Shown here one piece after another: positions 22,574-64,000 of a stretch of DNA of 64,000 nucleotides. The DNA comes from Nymphaea colorata. Its lineage: Eukaryota > Streptophyta > Magnoliopsida > Nymphaeales > Nymphaeaceae. Location: the NCBI RefSeq assembly GCF_008831285.2, contig NC_045144.1, positions 19,979,716 to 20,043,715 on the forward strand. Direction: 5' to 3'. The position numbers were made by a program, and so were the translations under genes. Below the pieces are notes generated by a model. The model was not told the origin of the DNA. It made no database searches and saw only the letters and a list, made by a program, of their open reading frames with translations. Each line of letters begins with the position of its first letter. Positions within the stretch are counted from its first letter, which is position 1.

Positions 22574-23626
22574 TTAACTAAGAACTTGAAGAAGTGACGT
22601 GGGCAGCCCGTCCATGGCCGACCGGAGGTCGGTCGCGAATATCACGTCGAAGCTTGCTCTGATCAGTGGCGGATAGAACAGCCACGCCGCCGTCACGTAG
22701 AGCACGGCCATGGTCATGAGCAGACTGACGAGCCGAGGGAGCTCGGGAAACCCGACGACCGACTTGAAATAGAGCTCCCCAGAGGCGAGAAAGCCCTGCA
22801 GCACAAAGAAGGCGGCCCACTCCCATGTCGGCGGCTCGAGGGTCAGGTAGTACAGCATGAGCTCGTGCATGAGCCCAGACACCAGGAAGGCGGTCAGCAT
22901 CGCCGCCAGGCGCGCCGTGCTCGAGCCCACCAGGCGCGACCAGGCCCAGCGGGCGGGACAGTACACGGCGGGCCTGAGGATGGTCGGGACGGCGAGGTTC
23001 CAGCGGCGACCCCAGAAGTCCGCAAGCGATGTCGCCCGGTAGGGCTGGTCGACCTGAGGCTGGAGCTCCAGGGCCAGAAGCAGGCGCGCCGGGACGGCAG
23101 AGGCGACCAGGAGTACCTCGAGGTTGCAGAACAACACCAGCGTGTAGAGCACGGGGAGGACGGCGGCGCGGTGACGCTGGGCGAAGTCGCTGGCGCAGGC
23201 CTTGAGGGACGGGACAATGAGAGCACAGGCGAGAGCGAATCTGGGCAGGGTCCTCGACAGAAGGGGGCGCCGGTCATTCTCAGGGTGGGGATGCACTTGC
23301 CTTGGGTCGGACTGTTTGGCATCGACGGGGAGGGCGGCGAGGGCGAGAAATCGGCGAAGGGAGTGGCGGTGGAGGGGGAGGGGACCGGAATCGAAGCAGA
23401 GGAGGAGGAGCTTGAAGTTGGACATCCAGGCGAGGCAGAAGGCGGTACCTCCGCGGAAGTGGACGGATGAGATTTGCCAGGGTAGCAAGAGGAAGAGGTA
23501 GACGATGGGGAGGGTGGCGATGAGGCGGGGGAGGTTCTTGGGCAGCCTGGAGACGACGGTGTAGACGTAGATCAGGGCGGCGATGGCCGAGATCCACACT
23601 CTCGCCACCGCGTTGAGGTCGCTCAT
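22574..23626 (-). CDS. Wax-synthase-like long-chain-alcohol O-acyltransferase, copy C (350 aa)
   Basis: Intact, intronless MBOAT of the wax-synthase family. It starts at ATG 23624-23626 with MSDLNAVARVW, without the MNAYRFPF extension of copies A and B. Marks: SRLPKNLPRLIATLP (26-40), LCFDSGPLPLHRHSL (76-90), DFWGRRWN (203-210), LMHELMLYY with the presumed catalytic His254, PPTWEW (265-270) and several hydrophobic helices. The FWGRRWN form differs from FWGHRWN of A and B. With the broken copy D it forms a second subgroup. The leader just upstream is CT/GA-rich, and a compound (CT)n(TA)n tract stands about 170 bases upstream. Likely ER-located ester synthesis; the acceptor alcohol cannot be predicted. 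Confidence 0.9.
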   Translation of the reverse strand: MSDLNAVARVWISAIAALIYVYTVVSRLPKNLPRLIATLPIVYLFLLLPWQISSVHFRGGTAFCLAWMSNFKLLLLCFDSGPLPLHRHSLRRFLALAALPVDAKQSDPRQVHPHPENDRRPLLSRTLPRFALACALIVPSLKACASDFAQRHRAAVLPVLYTLVLFCNLEVLLVASAVPARLLLALELQPQVDQPYRATSLADFWGRRWNLAVPTILRPAVYCPARWAWSRLVGSSTARLAAMLTAFLVSGLMHELMLYYLTLEPPTWEWAAFFVLQGFLASGELYFKSVVGFPELPRLVSLLMTMAVLYVTAAWLFYPPLIRASFDVIFATDLRSAMDGLPTSLLQVLS

Positions 23627-23796
23627 TCTCTATCTCTTTCACACACACACCACGAAGATGGGAGTGATCTATCTCTTTCCCAAGCAAACGGCGACTGAGG
23701 TGAAGGAAGAGAAAGAGAGAATCCCTCTCCCTCCCAGATAGCGTCGGCCATGGCCTATGCCGAGACATTAATTGCAGAAAATGTTACTGTCAATGA

Positions 23797-26238: not shown

Positions 26239-27306
26239 TTAACAGATTTCAGATCGCTTCAGTTTACTCTGAACTTGAAAAAGAGACGTTGACAGCGCGC
26301 CCATGGCGGAACGGAGCTCCGCCGCGGCCATCGTCTCGAAGCTTCCTCTCATCAATGGCGGATAGAACAGCCACGCCGCCGTCACGTACATAACGGTCAG
26401 AGTCAACAGCACACTGACGAGCCGAGGGAGGCTCGGAGCGCCGACGACCCACTTGAGGCAGAGCTCCCCGGAGGTGAGGAAGCCGTGCAGGACGAAGAAG
26501 GTGGCCCACTCCCAAGTCGGCGGCTCGACCATCAGGTAGTACAGCATGAGCTCGTGCATGAGCCCAGACACCAGGAAGGTGGCCAGGGTCGCCACCAGGC
26601 GCGCTGGGCTCGAGCCGACCAGGCGCGAGCAGGCTGACCGGACGGGGCAGTACACGGCGGGCCTGAGGATGGTGGTGACGGCGAGGTTCCAGCGGCGGCC
26701 CCAGAAGTCGCCGAGCGACGTCGAGATGTAAGGCCGGTCGAACTGAGAGTGGAGCTGCACGCCCAGAAACAGGCGAGCCGGGACGGTGGCCGCGCCGAGG
26801 AGGACGTCGAGGGGGGCGAACAAGACCAGCGTGTAGAGCAACGGGAGAACGGCGGCGCGGTCCGCTGGGCGAAGTCGCTGCCGCAGGCTTCGACGGTCGG
26901 GACCGTCAGAGCGCAGGCGAGCGCGATTCTCGGAAGGGTCCTGAACAGAAGCAATCCCCGATCATTCTCATGGTGGTCCTGCACTTTCTTCGGATCGAGC
27001 GGTTTGGCCTCGATGGGGAGGGCCGCGAAGGGGAGGAATCGGCGGAGGGAGTGGCGGTGCAGGGGGAGGGGACCGGCGTCGAAGCAGAAGAGGAGGAGCT
27101 TGAAGTTGGACATCCAGCTGAGGCAGAAGGCGGTGGAGCTGCGTATGGCGATAGAAGACATCTGCCAGGGGAGCAAGAAGAAGAGGTAGACGACGGGAAG
27201 GGTGGCGATGAGACGAGGAAGCTTCGTGGGGAGCCTGGAGACGACGGAATGGACGTAGATAAGGGCCGCCATGGCCGAGAGCCACACTCTCACAACTGCG
27301 CTGAGT

Positions 27307-27314
<8 letters not shown>
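26239..27314 (-). pseudogene. Wax-synthase-like acyltransferase, copy D, one-base frameshift
   Basis: Sister of copy C. From ATG 27312-27314 it reads MKELSAVVRVWLSAMAALIY and SRLPTKLPRLIATLP, in frame to SDFAQR. Near 26862 copy C has GGTGACGCTGGG while D has GGTCCGCTGGG, one base shorter. The rest (LYTLVLFAPLDVLL, DFWGRRWN, LMHELMLYY, PPTWEW) continues in the next frame to TAA at 26239-26241. All catalytic residues remain in the second part, and apart from the single deletion the gene would encode about 358 aa. It may be a young pseudogene, an allele, or a sequencing error. As it stands the product stops being an acyltransferase after about 150 residues. Confidence 0.85.

Positions 27315-27343
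<29 letters not shown>
27315..27343. repeat. (CT)n directly abutting the start codon of copy D
   Basis: About 29 bases of pure CT repeat lie immediately 5' of the ATG of copy D, so the transcript leader would end in (GA)n. Copy C has a shorter, interrupted version at the same place. Confidence 0.85.
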
Positions 27344-27348
<5 letters not shown>

Positions 27349-28269
27349 AGGTGAAACCTAGATCTCTCTATCTCGATCCCTCAGCTGAATTCGATGATAT
27401 AAAATAGCGAAGAAAGTACAGAGAGATAAAGAGAGAGAGGAAGAAAGTGGCAGAAAATGTTTGGACAGATTCACAAATTCAAATTTTGAAGTTTTTACCG
27501 TATCCTAAAAATGTGTGATACTATGACCATATTAGTTTAGACCAATGAAGACGTACCCTTTTTAGCCGAAGTTCGTTATAGGAGCTACAGTAGTTAACTA
27601 AAATACTTTTAGTTTTATCAAAATAAAATTGAAAAAAAATAATAAAAAAAAACTAGGAAGAACATTTCCTTTTTAATAAATTATCAAAAGTCTTTCTCTC
27701 CTTAACTGTGCATAACTTTCTCTCAAACAATATTTCATTTTACTATTCAGTTGAATGCAGAACCAATTGAAAGTCGAACAGTTGCCATCCTCAGTCCCAC
27801 GATACCAAACTTGCTTTTGATGTCTCTTCTCATAATAAGCTTCAACTTGCACACATGGATTTTACAACACAAGCAATTAACGTCCCTGACACTCAACTGT
27901 TCACCTACCAGTCTATACATACCATCGCATACCAACCAAATCTGAGCAACACTGATGACATGGGACCGGTCCAAAGAATAAACTATACAGCCAAGTGTTC
28001 TTATGTTTATGTCAGTACATTATCAGTATCGATATCCAATATATCTACAACTGTGAAATTGATATTTAGCTTGATTGCACCTGACGTAACGTGAGAACCA
28101 CATTGTGCAGTTTAATCACTTGATATTTCTTCGCCGTATGCCTCGATCAGATGAAAGTGATAATGCTTTTTGTCTTGAAAATTCAGATCCCCAAATACCA
28201 CTTCAATCCTCAAGAGCAACGCGATTACTTGAAATCATAAAGCGTTGAAAATTTGGCTTTCTGATCCCA

Positions 28270-37928: not shown

Positions 37929-38293
37929 CGTTCACGCAGTGTCGTGGGAAGAGATAGAGGTCATCCTTGTCATCAAGGTCACGAGGCGCCACCTTGGTCG
38001 TAGGCGTTCTATTTGCTATCAGTGCACCCAAAAAAACTCCATCCCATCCACCACCATTTTCCTCTCCCCCCTTCTTTTACCTGGTCATCATCATCTTTCT
38101 CTTTCTCCATGATAACCCAACAAACCCATCTTCCTCAAAATCGCAGAGGAAAGTTGACAAACCCACCAACCTTGTTGTTGCTGCACCACCTTCATAGATC
38201 AGATTTTTAATCGCATCAATGCGGTTCCTCTTCTCTCCTTTTCTGTAAATACCACCTCCCTTTTTTCTGTCTTCTCTCCCTCCGGGCTTTGAG
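37926..38293 (+). promoter_or_regulatory. Probable promoter and CT-rich leader of the TBC gene
   Basis: About 370 bases between the (TA)n tract and the start codon. The 3' part is pyrimidine-rich (for example 38040-38105), typical of plant 5' leaders. No certain TATA box or start site can be named. Confidence 0.35.
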
Positions 38294-41200
38294 ATGCATA
38301 TAACTCAAACAAAGAGAGGAGTATCCAATGGGGGCAATGTCCAGAGACTCCATTGGAAGGTTATCAACACCGTGAACAGCACCAATAAAATCATCAACGG
38401 AAACACCAATGGGAATGCTGCCAAGAAGAACGCCACCATCAAGGTGAAATTCACCGACCTTTACGAGTTCTCTGTAGAGGGGAACCTTGATGATGTGAAT
38501 GTATTGAACGAGGTGAGGGAGCGGGTGAGGCAGCAGGGGCGTACTTGGTGGGCTTTGGAAGCTAGCAAGGGTGCCAATTGGTACCTGAAGCCGCAGATTT
38601 CTTCGCTTTCGGAAGCTCTTACCGTTTCGTCGTTGAAGATTTCCGTTCTCGCAGACACCATCTTGTTGAAGCGGTTGATCAGGAAGGGCATTCCTCCTGT
38701 TCTTAGGCCGAAGGTCTGGCTCTCTTTGTCGGGGGCGGCGAAGAAGAGGTCGATGGCGCCGGAGACCTATTATGCCGACCTCATCAAGGCTGTGACGGAC
38801 AAGGTTACGCCTGCAACCCTGCAAATTGATCACGTGGGTTTGCTATCTTTTCTTTCCTCCTACCTTTCCATCAATTATGTATCTCTAAATTGGTATTGCT
38901 CATGCTTCTGGACATTGGCCCATGAATGGTGCATTGGGTGCTTCGTTTTTGGAATATGTTTCATAACTTGCTTCAGGTGGATGGTTACGAATGTGCGAGA
39001 TTCTCTATCTCTGTTTCTGTCTCTCATCTCTCTGTCTATCATCTCTCTGTCTTTCTGTATAGATTGTTTTGCTTAGATGTTTCTCATTCACGAAAGGTGC
39101 CAGAGTTTATTTTACTTGTGTTTTTCCTTTTTTATGTGGTGGATCTTTATCACCTATGGACTTTATATAGTTTTGGACCTGTGTATCTTTTTGCATGTGC
39201 AACTTTTTCTGATATGTGCTTTGCACTAAAGTAGCGAGTCAAGATACCGGGTACTTGTTTATTGAACTGGGCATCAGCAATATTTGTTGTTCCGACCGCT
39301 TTGTGCCTCCTGATCGTATTTTATTCTAAGATTAGTTTGTAAACTTGGTCGTATTTTAGATCCTGGTGAACAATCTTTCTTGTCATCTTGGGTTATTTGC
39401 AACTGTCGGACCTAATTATGAAAGATGGAAGACTCAAAATCCTTAGAGAAGCACGGGTGATCTTCATTCACATCGAAGGAAAGAAATGTTTTGAGATTTT
39501 ATTTGATGAATGGAGTGAAAAGCAGTTCTATGCTGACCCAGTATTCATTTATTTTCTTAACTTCCATAATACTTTTAGGCTTTTAACATTCTTGAAACTG
39601 AACAATACCAATTTGATAATAATCTAGTTTATGCATGAGAGCCATTACAGAGTCATGAGCGAATCCATATACTTGGACTTCCGGATTGCTTTCAGCATAT
39701 GACTTCGGCACTTTGCTCATTCACAAGTTTGCTAAACTACTTCGGATTTTCATCTTCCTGTGAATCTTTTACATTTTTTTTTTCTGAAATTCCTTTTTAT
39801 CCGAAATTTTGGTGATCTATTCTGCAGTTTTATGTACTTGCAATTCAGTTCATAATGTAACTCAGTATCGTGTATCATGTTTCTTTTAGTTTTTGTCTGC
39901 TTTACTGTATTGTTCATTCCTTTTTTTCATTTTTTTGTGGTTCAGAAATTATCTTTTTTTTTCTTCTAATTTTCAACAGGATTTACCACGTACATTCCCA
40001 TCCCATCCTTGGCTGGACACACCAGAAGGTCATGCATCTTTGAGACGTGTTCTAGTTGGTTATTCGTTTAGAGACTCTGATGTTGGATACTGTCAAGTAA
40101 GACATACTTAATTCTCCAATTGGTTGCGTTCTTGGCTCCTGAATTCATGTGTAGCATCTCTTTTGAGTTCAGGGATTAAATTATGTGGCTGCACTGCTGC
40201 TGCTTGTGATGAAGACGGAAGAAGATGCATTCTGGATGCTTGCCACCCTTCTGGAAAATGTGCTAGTGAATGATTGCTACACTGACAACTTATCTGGTTG
40301 CCATGTTGAACAAAGAGTATTCAAAGATCTGCTTTCAAAAAAATGTCCAAGGTTAGTTGCCTTTATTTTAGCTTCTAACTTGAGCCTCTTATTTTCCTTA
40401 AATATTGTAAGTTAACTAGGACAATGTATTCCAGAATTGCTACTCATTTGGAGGCTATGGGGTTTGATGTGTCTCTTGTTGCCACAGAATGGTTTCTGTG
40501 CCTCTTCTCGAAAAGCTTGCCATCAGAGGTAGGCCATGACATATGAACAGAAGAATATTGTGAACTTCAGGGAGATAATTCTATGGCTTATCCGCATGCT
40601 CTAACAGTTGCTAAAAGATTGTTAAGCAATGCCTTTGCTGATTAATGAATATGCTTGTCATTGTTATAAATCATGGTACCCACAAGTTCATATGTCCAAT
40701 CCTGTCCTTGAATTGCACATTTTGCTAAAATAGGTTTGTCCTTCAGATGCTTTAGCTTCCAAATAAGAATCTGTGCTTTTTTTCATCCTCACACAGGTGC
40801 ATATGTGCATTATCAGTGCACATACATAAGATTTTTCTGTTTTCTTAACAATCATGATAAGGCTTGTAGTACAAATTGTGTTCCTGTAAAGATGCTTATA
40901 TTTCCAGTTTAAGAAATTATCCCATCTGGCCGTCTTACCTCCGGATTTTAAACAAGCATACTGCAGGATAGATGGTTTGAACTTAAATTCTCCAAACAGT
41001 AAACACCACATTTGTGTATGAGGCTCCTAAGGAGATTAGTTCTTTCTCTGGTTGTCCTCTATCAGCCTGAAAGATAGTTATCCAAAATTTTGCAATGCTC
41101 TATCTTTACGTAGCTAATTCTTGAAAATTCAAGTCTTGTTCATCATGACAGCTATAAATGAGCTTGGATTCCCACCGATTTCCCTGATTGTTAACCATAA

Positions 41201-46130: not shown

Positions 46131-46212
<82 letters not shown>
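46131..46212. repeat. (AT)n microsatellite, ~80 bp
   Basis: Pure AT dinucleotide repeat. At the homologous place in the duplicate (about 59646-59652) only CATATATAG is present, so the tract expanded in this copy. Confidence 0.9.
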
Positions 46213-46216
<4 letters not shown>

Positions 46217-46697: not shown

Positions 46698-47867
46698 TTA
46701 TTGAGAAGCACTATAGATACTATCATCTTCACCATAATCATACAAAGTCTCAGTTTTGACGGACTTCATGAACTCAGCATGCTCCTCCACTGTGCAGCAC
46801 TTATTTAAACAAATATGGCACCCTCCAGAGTGTGAGATCGCGCCACCTATCATCCCTAATGCTCGTAACCAGTTAAAATCAAACATATGTTTAAACAGAA
46901 ATGACACTTTCCAGTAGTTTATATCAACCTCACGTTTCCGATTGTTTTCATCTGCATCCACATTCACAATTATAAAAGTTCAGCCCTGCAATTATAGATG
47001 CACATTAGATGGTTATATACACCACTCTTGTGTATGTAATTTCATGCGTCATTTTAATAATGACAAAAAATGCTCAAGATTAATATAAAAGAAACCTTTT
47101 TTACAAAAAATGAAACTATAAAAAAAAGATTTGAAGACTCAATAAATATAAAATTTGTGAGTACATATATACATATCGTTATGACCAATATATCCCTTTA
47201 AACAGTAAAAAGACATTTTCGTTTTTTTGCCCCACTAATAGTGTTATCTCTTTATCTTATAAATATTTTATTACCAGATATTTATGTTCAACATCATTCC
47301 ATACATCCGTCCATTATCTGATTATTTCATAAATATTTTATTATCTCATAAAACATTATATCATATTTATGTTTAGTATTATCTCATACATCTGCATGTT
47401 ATTTCATTACCTCATAAATCTTTTGTTATCTCACAAACATTATCTCATATTTATGTTTAGCGTTATCTCATACATCTATCCTCTGTTATTTGTTTATCTC
47501 ATAAATCTTTTGTTATTTGATAAATATCATCTCATACTTATTTGTTGTTTCTAACATATTTGTTAACTCACACACATGTATATGCAATGTTAGGTCATAA
47601 ACGTAAATATGCATATTGATAGTATGGTCTATATCCGGCATAGGCTCGTTACATATACAAAAAGACCTACATCTGCCACCGCCAAAGCAATAGGTGGCAT
47701 GATCTGTCGTTGATGGGCTAATGACTTTGGAAGGAAAAAGAAGTAAATTAAGGAAGACTTAGAGATCAGCAAAACATACTCTTATTCTCGTATAGTCTAC
47801 TTGCAAAAGTCACAGAGGACAGTAAGAGAAAGGCAACAATGAAGATTAAAAGAGGAACTTGCTTCAT
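46698..47867 (-). CDS. Small secreted Cys-containing protein, gene 2 (two exons, 113 aa)
   Basis: Exon 1 is 47867-47780 and exon 2 is 46951-46698. The donor is A|GTATGT and the acceptor ...GGATGCAG, the same phase and site as gene 1 at 54378. Residues 1-22 are a signal peptide (MKQVPLLIFIVAFLLLSSVT-FA). The mature part is about 91 aa: a basic/polar stretch (ENNRKREVD), a mixed middle, then GGCHICLNKCC (Cys 74, 77, 81, 82), followed by TVEEHAEFMKSVKTE and an acidic tail. The CC-x2-EE-x-AEF-x-K signature is shared with gene 1. The middle differs wholly from gene 1's proline-rich segment, which suggests fast change or a different use of the intron-exon sequence. Function unknown; a secreted peptide or wall protein is inferred. 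A distant link to glycine-rich/Cys-rich GRP proteins is possible. Confidence 0.65.
47240..47575. repeat. AT-rich tandem repeat, TTATCTCATAAA family (copy 2, in intron of gene 2)
   Basis: About four diverged units with a period near 82 bases (for example TTTATGTTTAG at 47367 and 47449). Same family and same flank as at 21180-21560. It lies inside the intron of the secreted-protein gene 2. Confidence 0.75.
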
Positions 47868-47947
47868 TGTAAATAGCAACTGCGTCTGGTGGAGGAAGAC
47901 TGGATGAATGCATTGTAGAACGAGACCTCCTCCATCATCGATCATCG

Positions 47948-47954
47948 ATTTATA
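47948..47954 (-). promoter_or_regulatory. TATA box of secreted-protein gene 2
   Basis: On the minus strand GCATATAAATCG stands about 80 bases before the ATG, at the place matching GTATAAATAGG in gene 1. The surrounding ~280 bases of promoter and leader are conserved between the two genes, with shared phrases such as CCAGTCTTCCTCCACCAG and GCAGTTGCTATTTACA. Confidence 0.7.
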
Positions 47955-48364
47955 TGCGTGACATGAGACTTAGTCAGAGAGCTACCTACCTTTCTGGAAA
48001 GAGAAAGAATTAATGAGGGTAGTTGAGAATCTGACCATAATTAATTTGAGACATTGTTCCAATTCTCCATGCTTCCTTTCAGTTAATCTTTCCTCCTCCT
48101 CTCACTCTCAATCCTGGATGCAAACCTGCAGGGCAAAAGTCCCTCAAGTCATTCTTTTTTATCAAAATTTAGAGAGGGCAAGCGTAAGAGGTAGGGATGA
48201 TGTAGAGATGGACATTGATCCATATTTCTGTAGATATGAAAGCTGGGCAATTATATTCCTAGTTGTTGCAAAAGTATATATGGATGGCACCACCAACAGA
48301 ACATATATAGATGTAAAGTGGAGATTAGGAGGAATTTACCGATTAACGATGATTTTTATGTAAG

Positions 48365-51330
48365 AACTTTTACAGAAAATCAAATTTTACGTGCAAAGAA
48401 TTGGTCTTATGCACCAACCGCTATTCAATATTTACAAAAAAAAAAAAAAGGAAAGAAAAGAGAGATAGAATGTATCTTTCTCTACTCCAAATGGGCCCGG
48501 GATGCACTGCAAGAGATAAAGCTCGAATTAATTAACTGTCGTGCATTGAATTGAGTAAAGCTCTTGACTCGGTCTTGGCCTTCTAAGAAAATGACGCCTA
48601 TTTATGGACAAGCGACTTCATTTATAGAACCATATAGGCCTATTAACATCGGAACTTTCTTCAAATTAGAAATTCTCATTATATTAATATAGTTAGGCAT
48701 ATTCCTCATCTTATTTGTAAAAGGTAAAATAATTGACAATTTTTTCGCTGATTTAAAAATTAAATTTTCAAAAACAAACTTATGATCAATTTTTTATTAG
48801 CGGTAGAAAGCTTAGGAGCAACTTAAAATTGTCTTTTGGTTGCTTGTGTTTGACATCAAGAGTATCACCTACAATGTCACATGGTCTACTCTTGGTTTGT
48901 GGGGGAAGGGGAAGCAAAGGAAGAATCATATTAGAGAATGAAACATGCTTTCAATTTTTGAACCAGATCAGAAACCATATGAGAAGGCTAAGGACAATGA
49001 GAAGGGAAACTCGCTTCACTGTTGACACTTACATTGGTGGATGAAGACCGGATGAGACACACAATGGCATCCCCTCGTAAGATCTATTTACAATAGTCGC
49101 ATGAGAACATTTCAGAGATCAACATTTCCCCTTCTTCTACGGCCACACAGGTTGTTTTTTTTTTTTTCACTAATATCTGAGAAAACATTTTTTTTCCACT
49201 AATATCTCAGAAAACACAACGAGAGCATAAGAAAAATAACTGTCCCCATCTTAACCATAAAAATGTAAAATTATCTACATGTTATAGATCAGGCTCCGCA
49301 CTCCCACACATATTTCATGTTAGTAGAAGACTCAAAGTAAAGAAAAAATTTCAAAAGCTGGCGGGGCTAAATTTTGATATATTAATGTGAGGACATACGA
49401 GCTGTATCACCGGCCGCGTCACTTATTTTTTGGTACCGGCAATTGCCTACATCAGCCCAACAAAAAACTTATTATACTGTCCCAAGATCACATTATCGTA
49501 ACTCAAAATTAGATTATATGTTATGTCCACACCAAATTTATGTTGCCAACTCAAGTGCCTCTTAGCAAAAAAATCCTAGCTCCACTACTGAGCTGTAAGT
49601 AGTAGTTGTAGAGACCCACCAGCTGCTACTGGTGCTGGGACGACCCTTCAATTGCAGTTGAGGGGCACACACATAAGTAGCTGACTTTTTTCCTCCAAAA
49701 TTTAGATCTCACCAGTAAAATGACCTCGAAGATGACCTCCACGAAGCAACTTGAATTTTTGCATGATTCAATGATCCTGAATAATGAAGTTGGCCCTATA
49801 CAAAGAAAGGCCTCCCTTTGAAATCCACGGTGAGAACGGGATGATCTTTAGAACGTTGTTCCACAATATCTGACATATCGCAGTAAGTTATGGAGTATGG
49901 TGTCTGTAATGATTGGGCATCCACGGACCACATTTGCTAGAATTTAACTCCCCACCAAACTCTACGACCTCGCCTTTGATCCAAGCATGGCCATATTTCT
50001 GGCTGTCTTTAGCTCTCACCAAACCCTTCGTCCACTTAAGGTAATAGGCCTGTTTTTAGTGTCATAGAATGCCGATTCCAAGCCGATTCAACTTACACAT
50101 CATGATGACCATATTGAAACTAAATCTCGCCAAACAACCCAACTCCCTACTCACCTCATGTCAGCTGTTGGAAGCCAACACGATTGAGAGAACTGATGAG
50201 GCTAAGGCTCACCACATTAGCCTGCTAGATACAAAGCAAAAAACAATCTTTTTGTGTCAAAAAACTTGGTGTGTGCGTGCTGGTGTGAGGCAGTCTGGAG
50301 GGCGAAGCTAACTGGAGCAGCATGTTCCAAGATATTCAAGAGATGTTTGTGAATGAAGATCTACATTTCTCACGATAATCCGTCCACAGATCTCATGAAC
50401 AGGGCCACTTTAACGAAGCTGGTTGTATAAACTTTGTTGTGTACAGTGTATGTGACAAGGATGTGTAATGACCAAAATACAGCAAATAAAATGAAAAATA
50501 AAGATTTTGAAAACGACAAAAATGAAATTGTAAAAAAATAAAAAGATTTATAAAAAGTACACTTTATCATTAAAACTTTCTAACATACCCTCAACTCTCT
50601 CTCTCTCTCTTCGGGAGGCGTATATTTGTTAAACTTCAATAAAAAGGGAAAAACATAAATAAAGTATTCACTAACACGATTATGATGGTCATAATAAACT
50701 TTGGCGAAAGTAGCGTCGATGAAAGATTATAAACATGCATGCGTCAATCAATGAAAAGGCACTTTTATTGACATAAAAAACAGCTAGCAAGGAATGACCT
50801 AAGTGCTTGTTGAAGAAGATAGCGGCTATCATTCAGTAATCCCTTTTAGGGACGTGAGCAACAGTAATGGCACAGATTGTTGTAAAGTTTCGTAAAAATT
50901 TTACATATCCAACCCTACACAAAATTGAATATCAATATACAATTTGAATATACATCAATGGTCATCGTTGAGTAATAAATTTACAAAAAAAAGTTTCCTT
51001 TGACACCATTGTGAAAATTTTCAACATTATATAATGGACACCATAAGAAGAAGTTACCAGCTCTGCTACTGTGCATTCTGATCGTGATCCAAGATTGACA
51101 ACTAAAATGGCAGATAAAAGCTGGTTTTACTTCGTTAATGTTTAACTCATGTTATCTATTAGTAGCAAACTTTACACACACAAGGTTTTTTATATATGTA
51201 AATCTAATTTAAAGTAATTAATCACCACATATTTAATTTCAAGTACATACACAAAAGACGTATCTATTGCTTCTTGGCTTCTTGTTAACAACAAAAACTA
51301 GAAAATCCACAGGAACCGCATGCATACATG
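48365..51330 (-). repeat. Duplicated upstream block A (inverted relative to C)
   Basis: Read on the minus strand, this block matches 60640-64000 (block C). Matching points include the ends near 50664 / 61613 (ATTTATGTTTTTCCC) and 51060-51190 / 60740-60890 (AATGGCAGATAAAAGCTGG). Parts also match block B (51960-53870). It contains a decayed first exon of the secreted-protein family at about 48930-49019 and no intact gene. A conserved phrase ATCCACGGTGAGAAC near 49826 is present in all three blocks, possibly an old coding relic. Confidence 0.75.
48930..49019 (-). pseudogene. Decayed exon 1 of the secreted-protein family (in block A)
   Basis: On the minus strand, GTGAAGCGAGTTTCCCTTCT...CTTCTCATATGG gives VKRVSLLIVLSLLIWFL, matching the signal peptides MKRASLSILFLAFLFLSS and MKQVPLLIF. 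GTG replaces the start ATG. Upstream, GGTCTTCATCCACCA and a TGTAAATAG element correspond to the promoter and leader of the intact genes. No second exon was found. Confidence 0.65.
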
Positions 51331-51556
51331 TTCTCGTGTATAATTACCAAACAATAAGAATGTTCTCTTTTTTAATATTTTTATCCGAAGCTCCAATACC
51401 ACCACCTGCGCAGGTGCCAGAAACCAGTGATGAGGAGGTTTCAGTTAAAGGGACACTATGACCTCCGACATACTTGGCATACTCATCTTTGAAGCAGCAT
51501 ACATCGCCACAGCAGTGTCACTGCTGCAGTTGAGCCTAAAACCAGGGACTAAGATC

Positions 51557-51592
51557 TCCCTCCTACACACACACAACACACACACACACAAC
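51557..51592. repeat. (CA)n-type microsatellite
   Basis: A short interrupted ACAC tract. Around it (51330-51640) nothing else is recognised. Confidence 0.7.
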
Positions 51593-51639
51593 TTATAATC
51601 AAAATAATGCGACTATTTCCATGTATTGAAAAACCAAGG

Positions 51640-53870
51640 GACACGACTAAGAGAACTGAAGATGCTAAGACTCATCTCTCTAGCCTGATAGAAGAAACGA
51701 GCAAATGGCCACTTGCCTTGCCTTCCCTATTTGGTGGATAAGGGGAGGGAATTGTTTGGTGAGATTCAATGTCAATAAATCCATTCTGACATGCAAGTTG
51801 AAGCACAATTGGGGTCACCGAGGCATTGAAAGTAAACTTTGTGTAAAAGGATGAGGAGTTGATGGGAGCTTCGGCTCTCCTTGAGACGATAGAATAAAAT
51901 ACTCATTCTGTTCACTCAGAAGTATGGTCATCCCTAGAGGGCAGGTAAGGTGGTAGATTGGTGGTGGGGAGTTAAGTTCGAGCACATGTGGATGCCCAAT
52001 TGTTACAGGCCATGAAAACTCAAAATGCATGCATTCATAGACATGAGAATCAATAACCGATCAAATTCAATATGTCAGATCTTGTGGAATATTAATGTTC
52101 TAAAGTTGCTTTAGTTCTCACCATGGATTCCTATCTGACACCTTTGTTTGTATAGGGCCCAGTACTTGGCCATCTTTTGGTGAGTCCCACTTGAATATTT
52201 GTGTTCAAGTCTGGTACCTATTGATTTGTCTTGGGATATAAATTTAGACAAGTTGCTTCATGGGGGTCATCTTTGTGTTGGGACCTAAATTTTGAAGGAG
52301 AAAAGTCAGCTATGCATATGTGTGTCCCTCAACCACAACTGAAGGGTCCCGACAATAATCTATCAAATCATATCCCAGTTGTCATGACTTCATCCTTGCC
52401 CCTTGGTTAAGTTACCTACTAACGAAGTGCCTACTGCTTGCAAGAAACAGTAAACATTATACGTCATTATTGAATCTCTATTCAAGCATCAAGCAAACAG
52501 ATAAACATAATAGCTAGGTAGAATTAGAACTTTTGTGAATGCTTCATGGTCCGATCTCGCAAAAAATGATCGATGGTGACCTATTTCTAAAACATATTAT
52601 TCAGTCCAAAAGTTCTTAGGAGGTTATCAAATGTGATTGTAGATCAAGTAACCTCTACGCATGTCAGGGGCCATGGCCCCATTCAGATTATAAAAAAATC
52701 AAAATAGAGCATGTAAATTTTGAAAATTTTAATTTATCCTGTATCAAAAAATTTAAGAAATGATATTTCAGTCCCTGTTAAAATTTTTCAAACTATAATT
52801 CACTCTTACAACAAATAATTTCTAACTTTGTCCTTGTCTCGACAGTTTCAAAGCATACAATTACTAAACATAAGCTGCATGCAAAACATTTAAACACTAC
52901 AAGAAAGTATGTCCTTTTATTTTGCAATTAAGGTAACTCCGAAGGTCACCCCTTGCTGGTTGTAGTCTAACAAGAACACTCTTATGAAATATTTATGAGA
53001 TATTGAAATAACGGATGAATGTATGAAATAACGATAAACATAATATCAGATAATAATAAAATATTTATGAGGTAATGAAATAACATATGAGTGGAACAAA
53101 AAGACGAAAACATTTTTCACTGTTTGAAGGCTTATATTGGTCATAATGATAAACATATAAGAACCAATAAATTTTTACCCATCTTGAATCTCTAAATCAT
53201 CTTTTTTTTTGCTATTTTCTTTTTTGTCCCTACAAAAAGAAATATTAATCATGGGTATTTTTTTGTCATTATTAAAATGACACATGAAATTTCATACACA
53301 AGAACAATGCATATAACCAGTTTCGCCACAAACCAAGGGAATATTATGCGACATGGTAGGTGATACTATTGATGTCAAACACAGCAACTGCACACACGAC
53401 AATCTAAAGTTGCGCCTAAGTTTGCTACCGCTAATAAAAAACCTGTTCATAAGTTTATTTTTGAAAACTTAATTTTTAAATCAGCCAAAATTTGTCAATC
53501 TTTTACCTTTTACAAATAAGATGAGGGATGTGCATGCCTAACCAGTAACCAGTTTATTGATATAATGAGGATTTCTTTGAAGAAAGTTCCGACATTAATA
53601 GGCCAATATGATTCTATAAACGAATACACCCGAACATAAATAGAACACATTTTCTTCGAATCCAAAGCTGAGGCAAGAGCGTTGCCCAATTCAATGCAGC
53701 GACAGGCAATTAATTATAGTTTATCTTTTGCAGTGCATCCCCGACCCATTTGGAGTAGAGAACCAAACATTTTTTTTTGGTGTCGTTGTAAATATTGAAT
53801 AGCGGTTCTGGGCATAAGACCAATTTCTTTGCATTTAAAATTCAATTTCCTTAAAAATTTATCACATCAA
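51640..53870 (+). repeat. Duplicated upstream block B, next to gene 1
   Basis: From about 51960 to 53870 it matches block C in the same orientation (for example CCAATTGTTACAGGCCATGA versus CCAATTGTTACACGCCATGA) and block A in reverse. A short part at 51650-51700 (GAGAACTGAAGATGCTAAG) matches block A in the opposite sense, so a small local inversion lies inside. A MITE-like patch (CAGGGGCCATGGCCCC) starts near 52665, and an inverted TTATCTC-type array lies at 52975-53100. No gene. Confidence 0.65.
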
Positions 53871-54302
53871 AATCAGCATTAATCTGTAAATTCTCCTTAA
53901 TCTCCACTTTAAATCTATATATGTTTGGTTGGTGGTGCCATCCACATTTGTGCAACATCTAGGAATATAATTGTCTAGCTTTCATATCTACAACAATATG
54001 GAGCAGTGTCCATCTATATATCATCCCTCCCTCGTACACCTGCCCTCTCCAATTTTGATGTAAAAAAAAAAAGATTTGAGGGCCTTTTGCCCTGCAGGTA
54101 TTCATCCAGGACAGAGAGTGAGAGGGGAAAGATTAACTGAAAGGAAGCGCGGAGAATTGGTACAGTGTCTCAAAGTATGGTAAGATTATCAAGCTTGGGG
54201 AAATTGAATTGAATGGAAGGTGGCACGACATTCTCAACTACCCTCATTAATTCTCTCACTTTCTAGAAAGGTAGATCTCTGACTAAAGTCTCATGTGGCA
54301 CG

Positions 54303-54310
54303 TATAAATA
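54303..54310 (+). promoter_or_regulatory. TATA box of secreted-protein gene 1
   Basis: TATAAATA about 70 bases before the start codon, at the place matching the gene 2 TATA box. The flanking CTCATGTGGCACG and GATGGAGGAGGTCTC are also conserved in gene 2. Confidence 0.75.
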
Positions 54311-54377
54311 GGTGATGGAGGAGGTCTCATTCTACACTCATCCAGTCTTCCTCCACCAGTTGCAGTTGCTATTTACA

Positions 54378-55557
54378 ATGAAGCGAGCTTCTCTTTCAAT
54401 ACTCTTTCTTGCCTTTCTCTTCCTGTCCTCTGTGGCTTTTGCGCGTGAATTGGTTGAAGATCCGAGTATGTATCGTTCCCCATTCAATCCATCTTTCTTT
54501 AGAGGTTGTTTAGCTAAAGTAACACTCTGTCATATAAACCTGTTTTAAAAAAATGGGGCAGTTTCATATAACATTGTAACAAGTGTTCCATGCTCTTTTC
54601 ATTTTATTTTGTGGAATATCAGTAACAATCAAACAGCATCTTACTTCATCCAAAGCGATTGCAGAGGATCATGTCACCCGGTAAGGGTGATACTCTTGAT
54701 GTCAAACCGGCAACTGCACGACAGACTTGCTTCGATGAGACACCAACAAGGATTGATGAATCTGCGGTTGTCCTTTATTAGTGGTGCTAGATATTTGAGT
54801 AGTCTCATCTGTTCTGCCTCCCCAGATCTATATCTCTCTATCTCTCTTTATTTCTGACACTACAAACACACACATGAACATGCTCAAAGACATATTATGA
54901 ACAACATGCTCGTTATAGTTGGTTTTGCTGCTTTTCTCTTGTATTTATTTCCAAGCAGTCATGGTGTAGTTGCCAGTTTCTACTTGCTGCTTTCGAACTT
55001 ATGTTGCATACCTGCATTTTTCCTTTTGGCAAATTTGTTCCAAGGACCCAAAAAGAAAAAAAGAAAAACCTCCCATCTAATGCCTGCTCGGACAATTTTT
55101 TTTTTTTGGCTTGGTTTCAAAGTCCAAACAAGGAAGTCTCATTGCAGGCATCATAATGCTATTGGGTTACAGGAAACATTATTAATAAGAAACCTGCTTT
55201 TGATCGACTTTCTGTCAAGTGCTAAAAGAAATAGTAACTGGAAAGGCGAGTAGTTCCCACTAGCTGGCCTTTCGGATATATTAAGCAAACCACCGTGCGT
55301 GTTATTCGGCTGAACGCTTTCCTAATTGTGAATATATGTATATCTTTATGGATGCAGACGAAGGCAAAGTCGGCTTCCCCTTCCCCAGAACCGTCCCCAA
55401 AATCCCATTCAAACCCGGCCCGATCGTTAAACCTGTTCCCCGCATATACTCGTGCTATAATTGCCACCAAAGGGGTATGAGCTGCTGCGGGACTCATTGC
55501 TGCTCTGCGGAGGAGTATGCTGAGTTCGTAAAAGCTCACAGCGTTCCGCGGAACTGA
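54378..55557 (+). CDS. Small secreted Pro/Cys-rich protein, gene 1 (two exons, 95 aa)
   Basis: Exons 54378-54465 and 55358-55557, intron 892 bases with A|GTATGT donor and GGATGCAG acceptor; the phase matches gene 2. The product starts with a signal peptide (MKRASLSILFLAFLFLSSVA-FA, cleavage likely after residue 22). Then come RELVEDP, a proline-rich stretch (about 38-58: FPFPRTVPKIPFKPGPIV) and a compact Cys region with six Cys at 62, 65, 72, 73, 77 and 78 (CYNCHQRGMSCCGTHCC). It ends SAEEYAEFVKAHSVPRN. Six Cys could form three disulfides. I do not recognise the family with certainty. The SS-x-ARELxE signal end and terminal CC-S motif faintly recall plant glycine-rich GRP proteins, but there is no glycine-rich part. 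The intron contains a fragment (near 54670-54710) also found downstream of the decayed exon copies. Confidence 0.7.
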
Positions 55558-55775
55558 AAACTGCCGGCTGATCCCTGTTTTCTCTTATGATTATGATGAT
55601 GATGATGATAGTGATAGTGGTTACGGTCCTTCTCAATAAGAAAACGAGCATGCTTGTTGCCTACTAGCAGTGCATGCACGCAAGCTGTTCATTTCCTAGC
55701 TCTTGTTGTCTGGAAAAACATGTAGTATCTACTTCTGCCTGTTGTAATGCAATTAAATTTGCTGTGCAAATCCGA

Positions 55776-55941
<166 letters not shown>

Positions 55942-59748: not shown

Positions 59749-60620
59749 TTCGCATGGTCAGAGGGGAGCCAGCTATTTTTTATGAGGACGGCTGAATGAT
59801 AGTTTCAAAATTTTAAGAAAAGATGAAATATCTTATTTTCAAAATTTTTATATACAATACATAATTTTTTTAAAAATCTATTTGTAAATTATTTTAGTTT
59901 CAACAATTTGACCCGCAAATAAAATTTTTAAACAAAACTAATCACATAAGCATGAAACTCTCATGCATACATTCATTCAATCATTTCACAATCATTCAAT
60001 CACATCATAATCTTAAGATCCAACGATCCTAAGAACACACATTCACAAGTTGGCCCATCCCTGCCTGAAATGCCGCCATACCTGTCATGCGTCCACAAAA
60101 TACCCAAAACGCCTTGAGTTTAGAATCTGGTCGCTCAAGGTCTATTGGACGTGCCTGGTGTACTTGCAAACATACACAAGTGGTAATCTCTACTTGTTTA
60201 GTTTCACAATCCATATAAATATAAAACAACATCATTGAGGCACATGTCATCGCCTCAAGAGGGTGTCGACGGGTAGTGTCGACCCACAAAGCCCTCCAAT
60301 AGGCCTCTTATCAGCCCTAGAGGTTGTCACCAAATGGTTTAAGCTTCACGCTTTCGATTTTGAACCGATCACTAATCTGTTTTTCCCTTGATTCTTTAGT
60401 TGAAGCGTCTTCCCAACATACAACATGCATGTACTTTAACACAAACATACTTCACTAGTTCTATAACACAGTTCTAAATCGTCTCCACATCACCATAGTT
60501 CTACCATGAGCGCATGGCAATGATTATGCACCAGGTAGTGATCTTGGAGCTTCCGATAAAAAAAATTAAAAAAAGAACATGATTATTGTTTTGTAAGTAT
60601 ACAAGAGGCCCTGTATGCAT
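59749..60620. other. Intergenic, no gene recognised
   Basis: The first part (from about 59760, CAGAGGGGAGCCAGC) may be a worn MITE-family remnant followed by AT-rich DNA. 60030-60420 is of average composition with phrases such as GGTAGTGTCGACCCACAAA and could be an unclassified repeat. Open frames 60029-60289 and 60050-60238 overlap on opposite strands and are not supported. Confidence 0.4.
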
Positions 60621-61259
60621 GCGGCTCATGTGGGTTTTCTAGTTCTTGTTGTTAGCAAGAACCCAAGAGGCAATAGGTACTAGGTACGACTTTCGTGTGT
60701 GTACTTGTGCAATGAAATTAAATATGTTGTGCTTTAAATTAGATTTGCATCTATACAAAGCCTTGTGTCCGTAAAGTTTGCTACTAATAGGTAACATTAA
60801 TTAAACATTAACCAAGTAAAACCAGCTTTTATCTGCCATTTTAGTTGTCAATATTGAGCCACGATCAGAATGCACAGTAACAGAGCCGGTAACTTCTTTT
60901 TACGGGGTCCATTATATAATATTGAAAATTTCCACGAGGGTCAAACGATTTTTGTTTTTTGTTTGTAAATTTATAACTCAAAGATGACCATTGATGTATA
61001 TTCAAATTGTATATTGATATTCAAAATTGTGTAGGGTTGGCCAAGCAATTTTTTACGACATGGCATGTTCCTAAGGAAGATAAATGAAAGGGAAATGAAT
61101 GGAATGGAAAGAAAAAGAAAATGGTCATTATAAAAAAGCTTGTTTTGATAAAAAGGAAAAGAAAGAAATGCAAAAAATATAAGAAGATGTAATTTCTCAT
61201 TATAAACAAGATTTTTCAGGTCCATTGGTGAAAAATGATCTTGCTGAGAACAAAGTGTG

Positions 61260-61471
61260 GCCAACAAGAAAGAAAAGGAAGAAACAGAACGCACGGTGTC
61301 TCTTCCAATCGAGGATCCACGCACACTTGAGAGTGCCGCCGTGCTGCTGCTGTTCTTCCTCTTGCTCGGTGGCCTCGCTGCGATCTTGCCTCTGCGCCAA
61401 AACAAGGAAGAACTTCAGCATTTGAAGACTTATCAAATGAGGAGAGTGACCACCTGCCTCCGTCGCCCGTG
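61260..61471 (+). other. Coding-like stretch with one membrane segment, unknown
   Basis: The frame reads KKEKEETERTVSLPIEDPRT then LESAAVLLLFFLLLGGLAAI and LPLRQNKEELQHL, ending RRVTTCLRRP. There is no proper ATG in frame (a TGA stands at 61245-61247), but an acceptor-like TTTTTCAG lies at 61212-61219. It could be a final exon of a membrane protein or an accidental frame in a GC-richer patch. Followed by a (GAA)n run at 61523-61550. Confidence 0.25.
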
Positions 61472-62651
61472 AAGAAGAGAGAGAGGACGGGGAGGAGGCT
61501 CGGTCTCCGTTGCCACAAAAAAAGAAGAAGAAGAAGAAGAAGAAGAAGAAAAAGGAACAGAAGTTAACCAGGGAGAACGGGAGGAGGCCTCAAAGAAGAA
61601 GAGGAGGAAGGCCACATTATTTATGTTTTTCCCTTTTTATTGAAGTTTAACGAATATACACCTCCCAAAAAAAGAAAGAGAGAGAGAGAGTCGAGGGTAT
61701 GTTAGAAAGTTTTAATGATAAAGTGTACTTTTAGTTTTTTTATTTTTTCACAATCTCATTTTTGTTCTTTCAAACTCTTTATTTTTTTACTTTATTTGTC
61801 ATATTTTGGTCATTATACACCCTTGTGACATGCACATGAAAGTGTTTATATAACCAGCTTCGTAAAAGTGGTCCTGTTCATCAGATCTGTGGACGGATTA
61901 TCTTGAGAAATGTAGATCTTCATTCAAAACATCTCTTGAATATCTTGAAACATGCTGCTCCAGTTAGCTTCGCCCTCCAAACTGCCTCACACCAGCACGC
62001 ACGCAGCAAGTTTTTTGACACTAAAAGATTGTTTTTTGCATTGTATCTATCAGGCTAATGAGGTGAGTCTTAGCCTCTTCAGTTCTCTCAATCGTGTCCC
62101 TTGGTTTCTCCATAAGTGGACCTTGTATTTGAGGTGCCAAGAAATGGCTCCAAACAACTGCTGACATGAGGTGAGTTGTATCGGGTTGGAATCGGCGGCA
62201 TTCTTTGACACTAAAAACAGGCCTATTACCTTAAGTTAAAAAGGGGTTTGATGAGAGCTCCAAGCCATAAAAATGGCCATCGTTGGATCAAAGGCGAGGT
62301 GTAGAGTTTGATGGCAAATGTGGAAGCCCAATTGTTACACGCCATGAAGGCTCCGGACGCATGTATTCAGAGACACGATAATCCATAACCGACTGCAATA
62401 TGTCGTGGAACAACGTTCTTAAGATCATCTCGTTCTCACCGTGGATTTCAGAGGGAGACCTCTCTTTGTATAAAGCCTCTTCGTTATTCAAACATTCAAG
62501 TCGTTTCTTGGTGGTCATTTTTTTGGTGGGACCTAAGTTCTGAAAGAGAAAAGTCAGCTATAAATATGGGTGTCCCTCAACTGCAATTAAAAGGTCATCC
62601 CAAGCAAGCTGTGCGGGTCTAGACAGCTACTACGTACAGCTCAGTGGTAGA

Positions 62652-62863
62652 CAGGGGCGAAGCCAGGATTTTCTTCAGGAGCGGGCCGACAGTCTGACCT
62701 CTGAATCCAGATAGGGTCAAACTGAATTCCAATACAAAAAATACATTACGTAATTAAAAAATATTATTTTTTAATGTAAAAAAAAAAATTCATTGGCTGG
62801 GGTGGGGCCATGGCCTAGGCGGGCCACCCCTTCCCTCGCGGACCCCCCTTCCCTCCGCCCCTG
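62652..62863. mobile_element. hAT-type MITE, 212 bp, with paralogous empty site
   Basis: Ends: CAGGGGCGAAGCCAGG on the left and CCTCCGCCCCTG on the right (reverse complement CAGGGGCGGAGG). Flanking 8-mers GTGGTAGA (62644-62651) and GTGGCAGA (62864-62871) differ at one position. The matching site in block A (about 49575-49600, reverse strand CAGTAGTGGAGCTAGGATTT) lacks the element. No coding capacity. Confidence 0.85.
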
Positions 62864-63342
62864 GTGGCAGAAGGATTTTTTTGCTAAGGGGTACTTGAGT
62901 TGCTGGCATAAGTTTTAACATGTAATTTTTGAGTCATGACAATGCAATCTTGGGCATTTACAATAATAAGATTTTTGTTGGGCGGATCTGAGCATTTCCT
63001 CACATTTATATATCAAAATTTAGCCCCACCAGCTTTTGAAAATTTTTGTTTACTTTGAGTTTTCTACAAGGTAATATGTGTCGGAGTGCGGAGTCTGATT
63101 CTCTATAACATGTAGATAATTTTACATTTTGATGGTTTTGCCTTATCCCCATATTTAAGAGGGGGACGGATATCTTTCTTGTGCTCTCGTTGTCTTTTCT
63201 TTTCTGAGATATTAGTGAAAAAAAACCTGTATGGCCGTAGACGTAGGGGAGATGTAGATCTAGGTCTCATGCCACTATTGTAAATAGATCTTACAAGGGG
63301 ATGCCATTGTATGTCTCATCTCCACCAGTTTCACCGTTAAAA

Positions 63343-63430
63343 GTGGAGCCAGTTTCCCTTCTTATTGTTCTTACTCTTCTCTTATTCCCTCTATAAATGG
63401 TTTGTGATCTGGTTCAAAAGTTAGAAGCAT
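63343..63430 (+). pseudogene. Decayed exon 1 of the secreted-protein family (in block C)
   Basis: GTGGAGCCAGTTTCCCTTCT...CTTATTCCCTCTATAAATGG corresponds to the decayed exon in block A and to the signal-peptide exons of genes 1 and 2. The start codon is GTG and a stop follows soon. Leader phrases (CTCATCTCCACCAG) are still visible upstream. Confidence 0.6.
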
Positions 63431-64000
63431 GTTTCCTTCTCAAGTATTATTCTTCCTTTACTTCCCCTTCCCCCACAAACCAAGAGTAGATCAGGAGACA
63501 TAATAGATGATACTCTTGATGTGAAACACAAGGAACCGAAAGACAATTTGAAGTTGCTCCTAGTTTTTCTACCGCTAATAAAAAATTGATCATAAGTTTG
63601 TTTTCGAAATTTAATTTTTAAATCAGCAAAAAATTTGTCAATTATTTTACCTTTTACAAATAAGATGAGGAATATGCCTAACTATATTAATATAATGAGA
63701 ATTTTTAATTTGAAGAAAGTTATGATGTTAATAGGCCTATATGGTTCTATAAATGAATACGCTTGTATCATAAATAGGCGTCATTTTCTTAGAAGGCCAT
63801 GACCGGGTCAAGAGTCTGACTCAATTCAATGCAGGACGAGTTAATTAATTCGAGCTTATCTCTTGCCGTGCATTCCGGGCACATCTGGAGTAGAAAGATA
63901 CATTCTCTCTCTCTCTCTCTCTTGGTTTTAAATATTGAATAGCGGTTAGGGCATAAGACCAATTATGTGCATGTAAAATCCGATTTTTTTATAAAAGTCC

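What the first reader, a model, noticed from the sequence alone, without database searches (positions are those of the whole stretch)
46698..55557. Divergent pair of genes for an apparently undescribed small secreted Cys-rich family
Genes 1 and 2 share TATA box, leader, signal peptide, intron position and phase, and a C-terminal Cys cluster followed by EE-x-AEF-x-K. Their middle parts are entirely different (proline-rich versus basic/aromatic), and Cys number differs (6 versus 4). Conserved frame plus fast-changing mature part is typical of signalling or defence peptides. I could not place them in a known family.
Basis: partly seen in the sequence, partly recalled or inferred. Interest (0 to 1): 0.7.

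Follow-up and report, generated by a model that had tools for sequence, protein, structure and literature searches.

The report
Cysteine-rich offshoot of glycine-rich proteins
Two small secreted plant genes turn out to belong to a large, fast-changing tandem gene family that grew out of a known class of glycine-rich cell-wall proteins and has largely swapped its glycine-rich middle for proline-rich, aromatic or cysteine-studded ones, which makes a known protein kind look quite new in this plant.

Summary
Genes 1 and 2 share TATA box, leader, an 88-base signal-peptide exon, a phase-1 intron and a Cys tail (CC-x2-EE-x-AEF-x-K), with unrelated middles. But they are not a lone pair. The plant's own genome was searchable, and they are the first two of 12 gene models in a 111-kb array on contig C7. 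One more model lies 0.2 Mb away, and 18 further unbroken second exons like gene 12's lie on the same contig. The family can be placed: a canonical glycine-rich protein (GRP, Pfam PF07172) of this genome, on C2, ends in the same tail, CCSAEEYAEFV, and has the same two-exon, phase-1 layout. A profile of the array finds it at E about 1e-7 (27.8-29.7 bits; best unrelated sequence 10.8). So this is a lineage of class-II GRPs that has mostly lost its glycine. Codon models show a conserved tail in 8 array genes (omega 0.24) and omega above 1 in the loops between fixed cysteines in two clades. Most likely these are apoplastic ligands or decoys. A WAK-type receptor target is inferred, not shown; no expression data were available.

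The parts
54378..54465 (+). gene 1 exon 1 (signal peptide, 88 nt, ends in phase 1)
55358..55557 (+). gene 1 exon 2: proline-rich middle, 6 Cys, tail CCSAEEYAEFVKAHSVPRN, stop
53326..54377 (+). gene 1 upstream region, TATAAATA at about 54303 and leader; homologous to the gene 2 upstream region
55558..55760 (+). gene 1 3' UTR, homologous to gene 2 3' UTR and, in part, to the DNA encoding gene 2's C-terminal extension
47780..47867 (-). gene 2 exon 1 (signal peptide, 88 nt, phase 1)
46698..46951 (-). gene 2 exon 2: basic/aromatic middle, 4 Cys, tail CCTVEEHAEFMK plus an extension whose DNA aligns with 3' UTR of genes 1, 4 and 5
47868..48902 (-). gene 2 upstream region with TATAAAT 87 bases before the ATG
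47010..47341 (.). dispersed repeat in the gene 2 intron (copies at 52984-53319 and, in part, at 21.1-21.6 kb)
51449..51517 (-). orphan relic of a family exon 2 (CCGDVCCFKDEYAKYVGGHSVP); stop just upstream in frame, no exon 1 found next to it
48978..49106 (-). relic of TATA/leader/exon 1 of a former copy (ATG now GTG)
   Evidence: and sequence
63250..63400 (+). relic of leader/exon 1 in the inverted duplicate of 48366-51408, by reading the sequence
63473..64000 (+). start of the upstream region of the next copy (gene 3), whose ATG lies 765 bases beyond the window

Best explanation
Genes 1 and 2 are members of a tandem, rapidly diversifying lineage derived from class-II glycine-rich proteins (GRP, PF07172). 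SHOWN: each of the 12 array models has a signal-peptide exon, an intron and a second exon ending in a Cys tail shared with a canonical GRP of this genome; the intron is phase 1 throughout, though g3 has lost its donor GT. SHOWN: the glycine-rich middle is kept in model A and in the C2 GRPs, and replaced by proline-rich (g1, g5), aromatic (g2, g3) or Cys-doublet (g6-g12) middles. SHOWN in sequence only: the tail of 8 array genes is under purifying selection, and the loops between fixed cysteines have omega above 1 in the two clades tested. INFERRED: the products are secreted to the cell wall; the conserved tail docks to a common cell-surface partner, as the Cys-rich C-terminus of Arabidopsis GRP-3 is needed for binding WAK1; the variable middle carries a changing specificity towards a pathogen or a mate; tandem duplication and recombination within introns keep producing new combinations.
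For: Shared architecture of the array. The PF07172 search of the own genome gave as its best hit a C2 gene ending GCYYRCGYRCCSAEEYAEFVQGGN. Spliced (junction by eye), it scores 41.7 bits against a cut-off of 30, E 1.8e-10. A tail profile of 11 array genes (model A, g8 and the C2 GRP not in it) finds it at 29.7 bits, E 7.8e-8, and the mature-part profile at 27.8 bits, E 3.7e-7. The 14 ORFs above it are the 12 models, A and the window relic; the next entry has 10.8 (tail) or 10.5 bits (mature) among 3423 ORFs, 200 shuffles and 1 reversed sequence. The C2 region holds two such GRPs and a proline-rich exon-2-like ORF with two tail units. Model A, with 15 Gly in 91 aa, reaches PF07172 below cut-off, 17.5 of 30 bits, E 0.0064. 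Selection: tail of 8 genes omega 0.24, lnL -290.36 against -297.72 at omega 1; loops of the 8-Cys clade, lnL -163.88 against -171.56; loops of the 12-Cys clade, omega 2.07, lnL -429.11 against -431.96. g2/g3 mature dN/dS 0.27, with exon 2 at 91% identity and intron at 81%. Mosaic copies. WAK1 link: passages of PMC4783359 and PMC4777284.
Against: Genes 1 and 2 themselves get no Pfam match at E up to 10. They have 5 and 6 glycines. No expression, secretion, disulfide or binding data. Omega of the whole mature part is not different from 1 (8-Cys clade 1.25; 12-Cys clade 1.03), so the selection signal depends on splitting off cysteine columns. The sets are small (13 codons in 4 genes, with omega and kappa at the bounds of the fit; 25 codons in 10 genes), and recombination is evident and not modelled. 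Behind the last Cys, omega is 0.55 (8-Cys clade) and 0.98 (12-Cys clade), neither different from 1: within these clades the tail shows no significant constraint, and the 0.24 comes from a wider set that includes the tail's CC. Pairwise g10a against g11 is not significant (Fisher p 0.24). g3 has lost its donor GT and its signal peptide has dN/dS 1.67 against g2; relics and broken copies are common. The WAK analogy rests on Arabidopsis; the AtGRP-3 sequence was not compared here.
Confidence: 0.6

Rival explanations
1. Secreted antimicrobial (host-defence) peptides: the disulfide-rich mature part acts directly on microbes and the loops change in an arms race; the tail is a folding or propeptide element.
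For: Fixed cysteines with loops at omega above 1, tandem expansion, signal peptide, 8- and 12-Cys cores.
Against: Genes 1 and 2 have only 6 and 4 Cys and proline-rich or aromatic middles; the tail is kept across members with quite different cores and in the C2 GRP; no match over cut-off to any Pfam family or significant PDB chain (chance-level hits only in 15 and 106).
Confidence: 0.25
2. Reproductive (pollen, stigma or ovule) recognition ligands: lineage-specific tandem Cys-rich peptides with changing loops, as for defensin-like LURE peptides.
For: Same evolutionary pattern; the LURE case is an analogy, recalled and seen only as the abstract start of PMC3525529.
Against: No expression data; no match to defensin-like families in Pfam.
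Confidence: 0.12
3. Ordinary cell-wall or metal-binding structural proteins whose middle drifts because only composition matters; apparent omega above 1 reflects relaxed constraint, gene conversion and recombination.
For: Whole mature omega about 1; 3' UTRs of g7, g10a and g11 98-99% identical beside exons at 81-84% hint at conversion; mosaic blocks; hybrid proline-rich proteins are known to drift in the same way (abstract of PMC2216038).
Against: The 12 cysteines are invariant in 8 of 8 rows of the 12-Cys alignment (L040, which has lost two, was not in it) while the codons between them change faster than synonymous sites; g2/g3 mature part conserved at dN/dS 0.27.
Confidence: 0.2
4. Mostly decaying duplicates with little function.
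For: Relics in the window; B pseudogene; g3 donor lost; exon-1 relics inside the g8 intron and in front of the g10 exon 2; one split copy at 21.5706 Mb; L040 with two cysteines lost.
Against: 11 of 12 array models keep start, donor, acceptor and frame; tail omega 0.24 in 8 genes.
Confidence: 0.08

Closest known systems
Class-II plant glycine-rich proteins (AtGRP-3 type; Pfam PF07172 GRP)
   Same: Signal peptide, variable low-complexity middle, Cys-rich C-terminus; in this genome the same tail CCSAEEYAEFV and the same phase-1 intron behind the signal-peptide exon.
   Different: Genes 1 and 2 have no glycine-rich repeats and no PF07172 match; the array ranges from 4 to 12 Cys; expanded in tandem with changing loops.
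Hybrid proline-/glycine-rich proteins (HyPRP/HyGRP)
   Same: A variable Pro- or Gly-rich part joined to a conserved C-terminal Cys domain, tandem multiplication and rapid diversification (abstract of PMC2216038; PMC4174136 seen only in the listing).
   Different: Their C-terminal domain is the eight-cysteine motif; no Pfam match to it was found in 11 members, and the doublet pattern here differs (pattern of 8CM recalled).
Lineage-specific plant Cys-rich peptide clusters (defensin-like LURE, NCR peptides)
   Same: Signal peptide exon, fixed cysteines, changing loops, tandem birth and death (analogy; PMC3525529 and PMC7230169 seen only in the listing).
   Different: No Pfam match to defensin-like families; descent is from GRPs.
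Granulin
   Same: Rows of Cys doublets in the 12-Cys members.
   Different: No Pfam match for 6 such members; PDB granulin A only at E 7.1 for one of them.

Membership tests
Class-II GRP | N-terminal signal peptide | tested here: met
   Hydrophobic N-terminus in the 12 array models and A by reading the sequence; no signal-peptide predictor was run.
Class-II GRP | Glycine-rich region (GGXXXGG-type repeats) | tested here: not met
   Gene 1 has 5 Gly in 95 aa, gene 2 has 6 in 113. Kept in model A (15 in 91) and the C2 GRPs, weakly in g4 (8 in 85).
Class-II GRP | Characteristic Cys-rich C-terminus | tested here: met
   Same tail as the C2 GRP; profile E 7.8e-8. Compared only with GRPs of this genome, not with AtGRP-3.
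Class-II GRP | PF07172 score over the gathering cut-off | tested here: not met
   Genes 1 and 2: no match. Model A 17.5 of 30 bits. C2 GRP 41.7 bits.
Class-II GRP | Binding of the C-terminus to a wall-associated kinase | not testable with these tools
   Reported for AtGRP-3 (passages of PMC4783359 and PMC4777284).
HyPRP / eight-cysteine motif | 8CM domain at the C-terminus | tested here: not met
   No such Pfam match in 11 of 11 members scanned (9 of them again).
Granulin | Granulin domain match | tested here: not met
   0 Pfam families for 6 of 6 twelve-Cys second exons and for g12.
Defensin-like / other Pfam Cys-rich peptides | Pfam match to a described plant Cys-rich peptide family | tested here: not met
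   0 matches over cut-off in 11 members scanned; sub-threshold only: PepSY_2 in 2, conotoxin in 1, GRP in 1.

The most novel reading that the evidence does not exclude
In a water-lily-like plant, a class-II glycine-rich wall protein has given rise to a new, chromosome-specific family of some 30 or more secreted peptides. The glycine-rich middle was replaced several times by other middles, including 8- and 12-Cys cores, whose loops are under diversifying selection, while one receptor-docking tail stayed fixed: a modular 'fixed anchor, changing head' recognition system.
Probability: 0.4. Interest if true: 0.68.

Novelty: new variant of a known kind. Interest (0 to 1): 0.52.

Why it matters
It shows, with likely intermediates kept in one genome, how a structural-looking cell-wall protein class can turn into a diversifying Cys-rich peptide family. 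That gives a route for the origin of lineage-specific Cys-rich peptides, whose ancestry is usually lost, and makes a prediction that can be tested: the fixed tail, not the variable middle, should bind a conserved surface partner such as a wall-associated kinase.

Tried and rejected
Tried without result: Pfam, NCBIfam and PDB searches with genes 1 and 2 alone (chance-level hits only for gene 2 in 15 and 16); PDB search with a profile of 11 members; Rfam and tRNA scans; text search for four tail motifs in papers, 0 papers; test whether the proline-rich middles are inverted glycine-rich ones: not for g5, only weakly for g1. In the PF07172 search, the other three of four hits (C13, which also reached the cut-off with its neighbours; C12; C1) show no such tail in the frames I read and were dropped. 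No structure prediction was run: the spliced proteins are not contiguous in the DNA, and a two-row alignment promised little.

Rejected: 'a lone divergent pair'; 'categorically new family'; granulin or toxin membership (chance-level PDB hits).

Rows dropped before counts: one search left g8 (near copy of g7) and A out of the profiles. Second exons of 11 of the 18 other unbroken gene-12-like places were fetched; one search left L035 (near copy of g12) and L040 (two cysteines lost) out of the codon model. One search used 4 of 6 eight-Cys genes for the mature part (g8, a near copy, and g9, more diverged, left out) and 8 genes for the tail (g2, g3, g8, g12 and A left out because of changed tails or near-identity). 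NG86 was computed for 5 of the 6 pairs of g6, g7, g10a and g11, and for 7 other pairs.
Full report
WHERE IT IS. The window lies at G000:C7:19979716-20043715 of a genome of 407,766,735 bases in 783 contigs. Its size fits the 409-Mb Nymphaea colorata genome (abstract start and passages of PMC7015852), but the paper's 804 scaffolds are not 783, so the species is an inference. C7 position = window position + 19979715.

THE OBSERVATION. Exon 1 is 88 nt in both, the intron is phase 1 in both, donors read A|GTATGT and acceptors GGATGCAG|A. TATA box, leader and exon 1 align at E 4e-40; gene 1's 3' UTR aligns with the end of gene 2's coding sequence plus its 3' UTR at E 8e-15. Gene 2's C-terminal extension (ETLYDYGEDDSIYSASQ) is best read as a frame shift before the ancestral stop: the aligned DNA is 3' UTR in genes 1, 4 and 5, and gene 4's 3' UTR reads LRTETLYDDGDDDSIYGAYQ in another frame.

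MORE COPIES IN THE WINDOW. A block 48366-51408 recurs inverted at 60532-63998 at 77-82% identity over three main pieces. It carries a leader/exon-1 relic (49106-48978 and about 63.3 kb). An orphan exon-2 relic lies at 51517-51449. The upstream region of a further copy starts at 63473 and runs off the right edge.

THE ARRAY. tblastn of exon-1 and tail queries over two fetched segments, C7 19815500-19825400 and 19884501-20168000, gave 17 exon-1 places and 16 exon-2 places, one of the latter a weak hit taken as chance (20123690). Twelve models were built between 20,026,413 and 20,137,353. Two (g2, g12) are on the minus strand and ten on the plus strand. Exon 1 is 88 nt in nine and 91 nt in three (g7-g9). 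Eleven of 12 keep start, donor, acceptor and frame; g3 has AT for GT at its donor; g10 has three candidate first exons and a 6.8-kb intron as modelled. Model A (19,818,785, glycine-rich) is intact and its neighbour B is broken. Cysteine number is 4 (g2, g3, g4), 6 (g1, g5), 8 (g6-g11) or 12 (g12). Invariant over 11 aligned members: M1, K2, A12, the CC of the tail and one E. The end is SVPxN in 7 of 13 models (12 plus A), and xVPxN or SLPNN in 3 more.

A SECOND LARGE BLOCK. A search with gene 12 gave 28 matches, all on C7: 21 rows for exon 2 (19 unbroken places including gene 12 itself, and one place split in two rows, one with a stop) and 7 rows for exon 1, 5 of them running past the exon into a stop. 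Most lie at 21.47-21.88 Mb, one each at 6.95 and 7.89 Mb. Second exons of 11 of the 18 other unbroken places were read. All 11 have the GATGCAG acceptor and an EY tail; 9 of 11 have exactly the twelve-Cys pattern, L042 has it plus one Cys in the tail, and L040 has lost two cysteines. The census is a lower bound: searches with g2, g7, A and the C2 GRP did not complete.

PLACING THE FAMILY. Pfam PF07172 was searched in the same genome and gave four hits. The best, on C2, belongs to a gene with exon 1 MALRRLSLLVIFAAFLLFSQVLARELEEKAVA and exon 2 (D)KKDALSQTQMDEFNDEKYGGYGGG...GCYYRCGYRCCSAEEYAEFVQGGN, joined in phase 1 (junction by eye). The spliced protein scores 41.7 bits against a cut-off of 30. 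Its first residues after the junction, KKDA, recur in g6-g8 (NKKDAR, DKKDAR). A profile of the array's mature parts and one of its tails find it at E 3.7e-7 and 7.8e-8. The 14 ORFs scoring above it are the 12 models, A and the window relic; the next entry has 10.5 or 10.8 bits (decoys were ORFs of the same C7 segments, 200 shuffles and one reversed sequence). The C2 region holds two such GRPs and between them an exon-2-like ORF with a proline-rich middle and two tail units, whose exon 1 and frame I could not resolve. Model A matches PF07172 below the cut-off. Genes 1 and 2 are therefore placed as descendants of class-II GRPs. They are not filed as GRPs, since the glycine-rich region and the Pfam cut-off were tested and not met.

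EVOLUTION. Among g7, g10a and g11 the 3' UTRs are 98-99% identical and the mature exon 81-84%. Pairwise NG86 dN/dS of the mature part is 0.70, 1.16, 1.24, 1.95 and 2.24 in the five pairs computed among g6, g7, g10a and g11; more distant pairs, whose middles hardly align, give 0.22 to 0.80 or saturated dS. The codon model gives omega 0.24 for the last 19 codons of 8 genes (2 delta lnL 14.7), 1.25 (not different from 1) for the whole 8-Cys mature part, and 1.03 for the whole 12-Cys mature part. Split by column, the loops between cysteines give omega at the upper bound in the 8-Cys clade (13 codons, 4 genes, 2 delta lnL 15.4, kappa at its lower bound) and 2.07 in the 12-Cys clade (25 codons, 10 genes, 2 delta lnL 5.7), while the part behind the last Cys gives 0.55 and 0.98, neither different from 1. 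Omega 1 was fitted on a grid of kappa values. The split by cysteine column is natural but was chosen after the whole-exon result. Signal peptides of 11 genes give 1.16, not different from 1. g2 against g3 is the other way round: mature dN/dS 0.27, exon 2 91% against intron 81%, signal peptide 1.67. Copies are mosaics: g7 and g8 are 99.9% alike downstream of mid-intron and 93.6% upstream; g7 and g9 are about 90% alike upstream and mostly 70-79% downstream; a g6-like exon-1 block sits inside the g8 intron. So exon 1 and exon 2 have partly separate histories, and recombination weakens any omega estimate.

HOW IT MAY WORK. AtGRP-3, a class-II GRP, sits mainly in the cell wall, binds the WAK1 ectodomain through its Cys-rich C-terminus, and modulates responses to oligogalacturonides and wounding (passages of PMC4783359; passages of PMC4777284). 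By analogy the fixed tail would anchor these proteins to a common partner, while the middle changes. This step is inference. Antimicrobial, reproductive and purely structural roles remain open.

NOVELTY. Papers were searched for the motif, Nymphaea with scent and Cys terms, class-II GRPs, GRP with tandem Cys peptides and selection, Nymphaea with GRP, class-II GRP with Pro-rich terms and Nymphaea with Cys-rich peptide terms. In the rows listed (searches show only the first ten of more) nothing appeared to describe this family. Only PMC5852109, PMC4783359, PMC7015852, PMC11756074 and PMC4777284 (passages) and PMC2216038 (abstract and outline) were opened. Papers outside the held open-licence library were not searched.

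CHECK AGAINST CALLS. 

Noticed in passing
window 8047-9246, 15773-17014, 22577-23629, 26242-27380 (all -): Tandem array of four MBOAT_2 (wax-synthase-like acyltransferase) ORFs; the fourth is split between two overlapping frames and looks frame-shifted; Pfam matches only its 26242-26961 part.
   Followed up: partly
window 38249-39073 (+): ORF that by eye resembles a TBC-domain (Rab GTPase-activating) exon; Pfam gave no match for the raw frame.
   Followed up: no
window 47010-47541, 52984-53319, 21118-21558: Dispersed AT-rich repeat built of TTTATGAGATAAT-like units; one copy fills much of the gene 2 intron, another sits upstream of gene 1.
   Followed up: partly
L033/L034, C2:1488500-1503000 (-): Second small GRP cluster with a proline-rich exon-2-like ORF bearing two Cys-tail units, a possible intermediate.
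   Followed up: partly
G000:C7:21.73-21.88 Mb: Five gene-12-like copies with identical scores at 21732314, 21763550, 21834825, 21857640 and 21880353, on both strands, suggesting very recent duplication or assembly redundancy.
   Followed up: no
window 46135-46215 and 55840-55940: Long TA microsatellites flank the pair on the outer sides.
   Followed up: no
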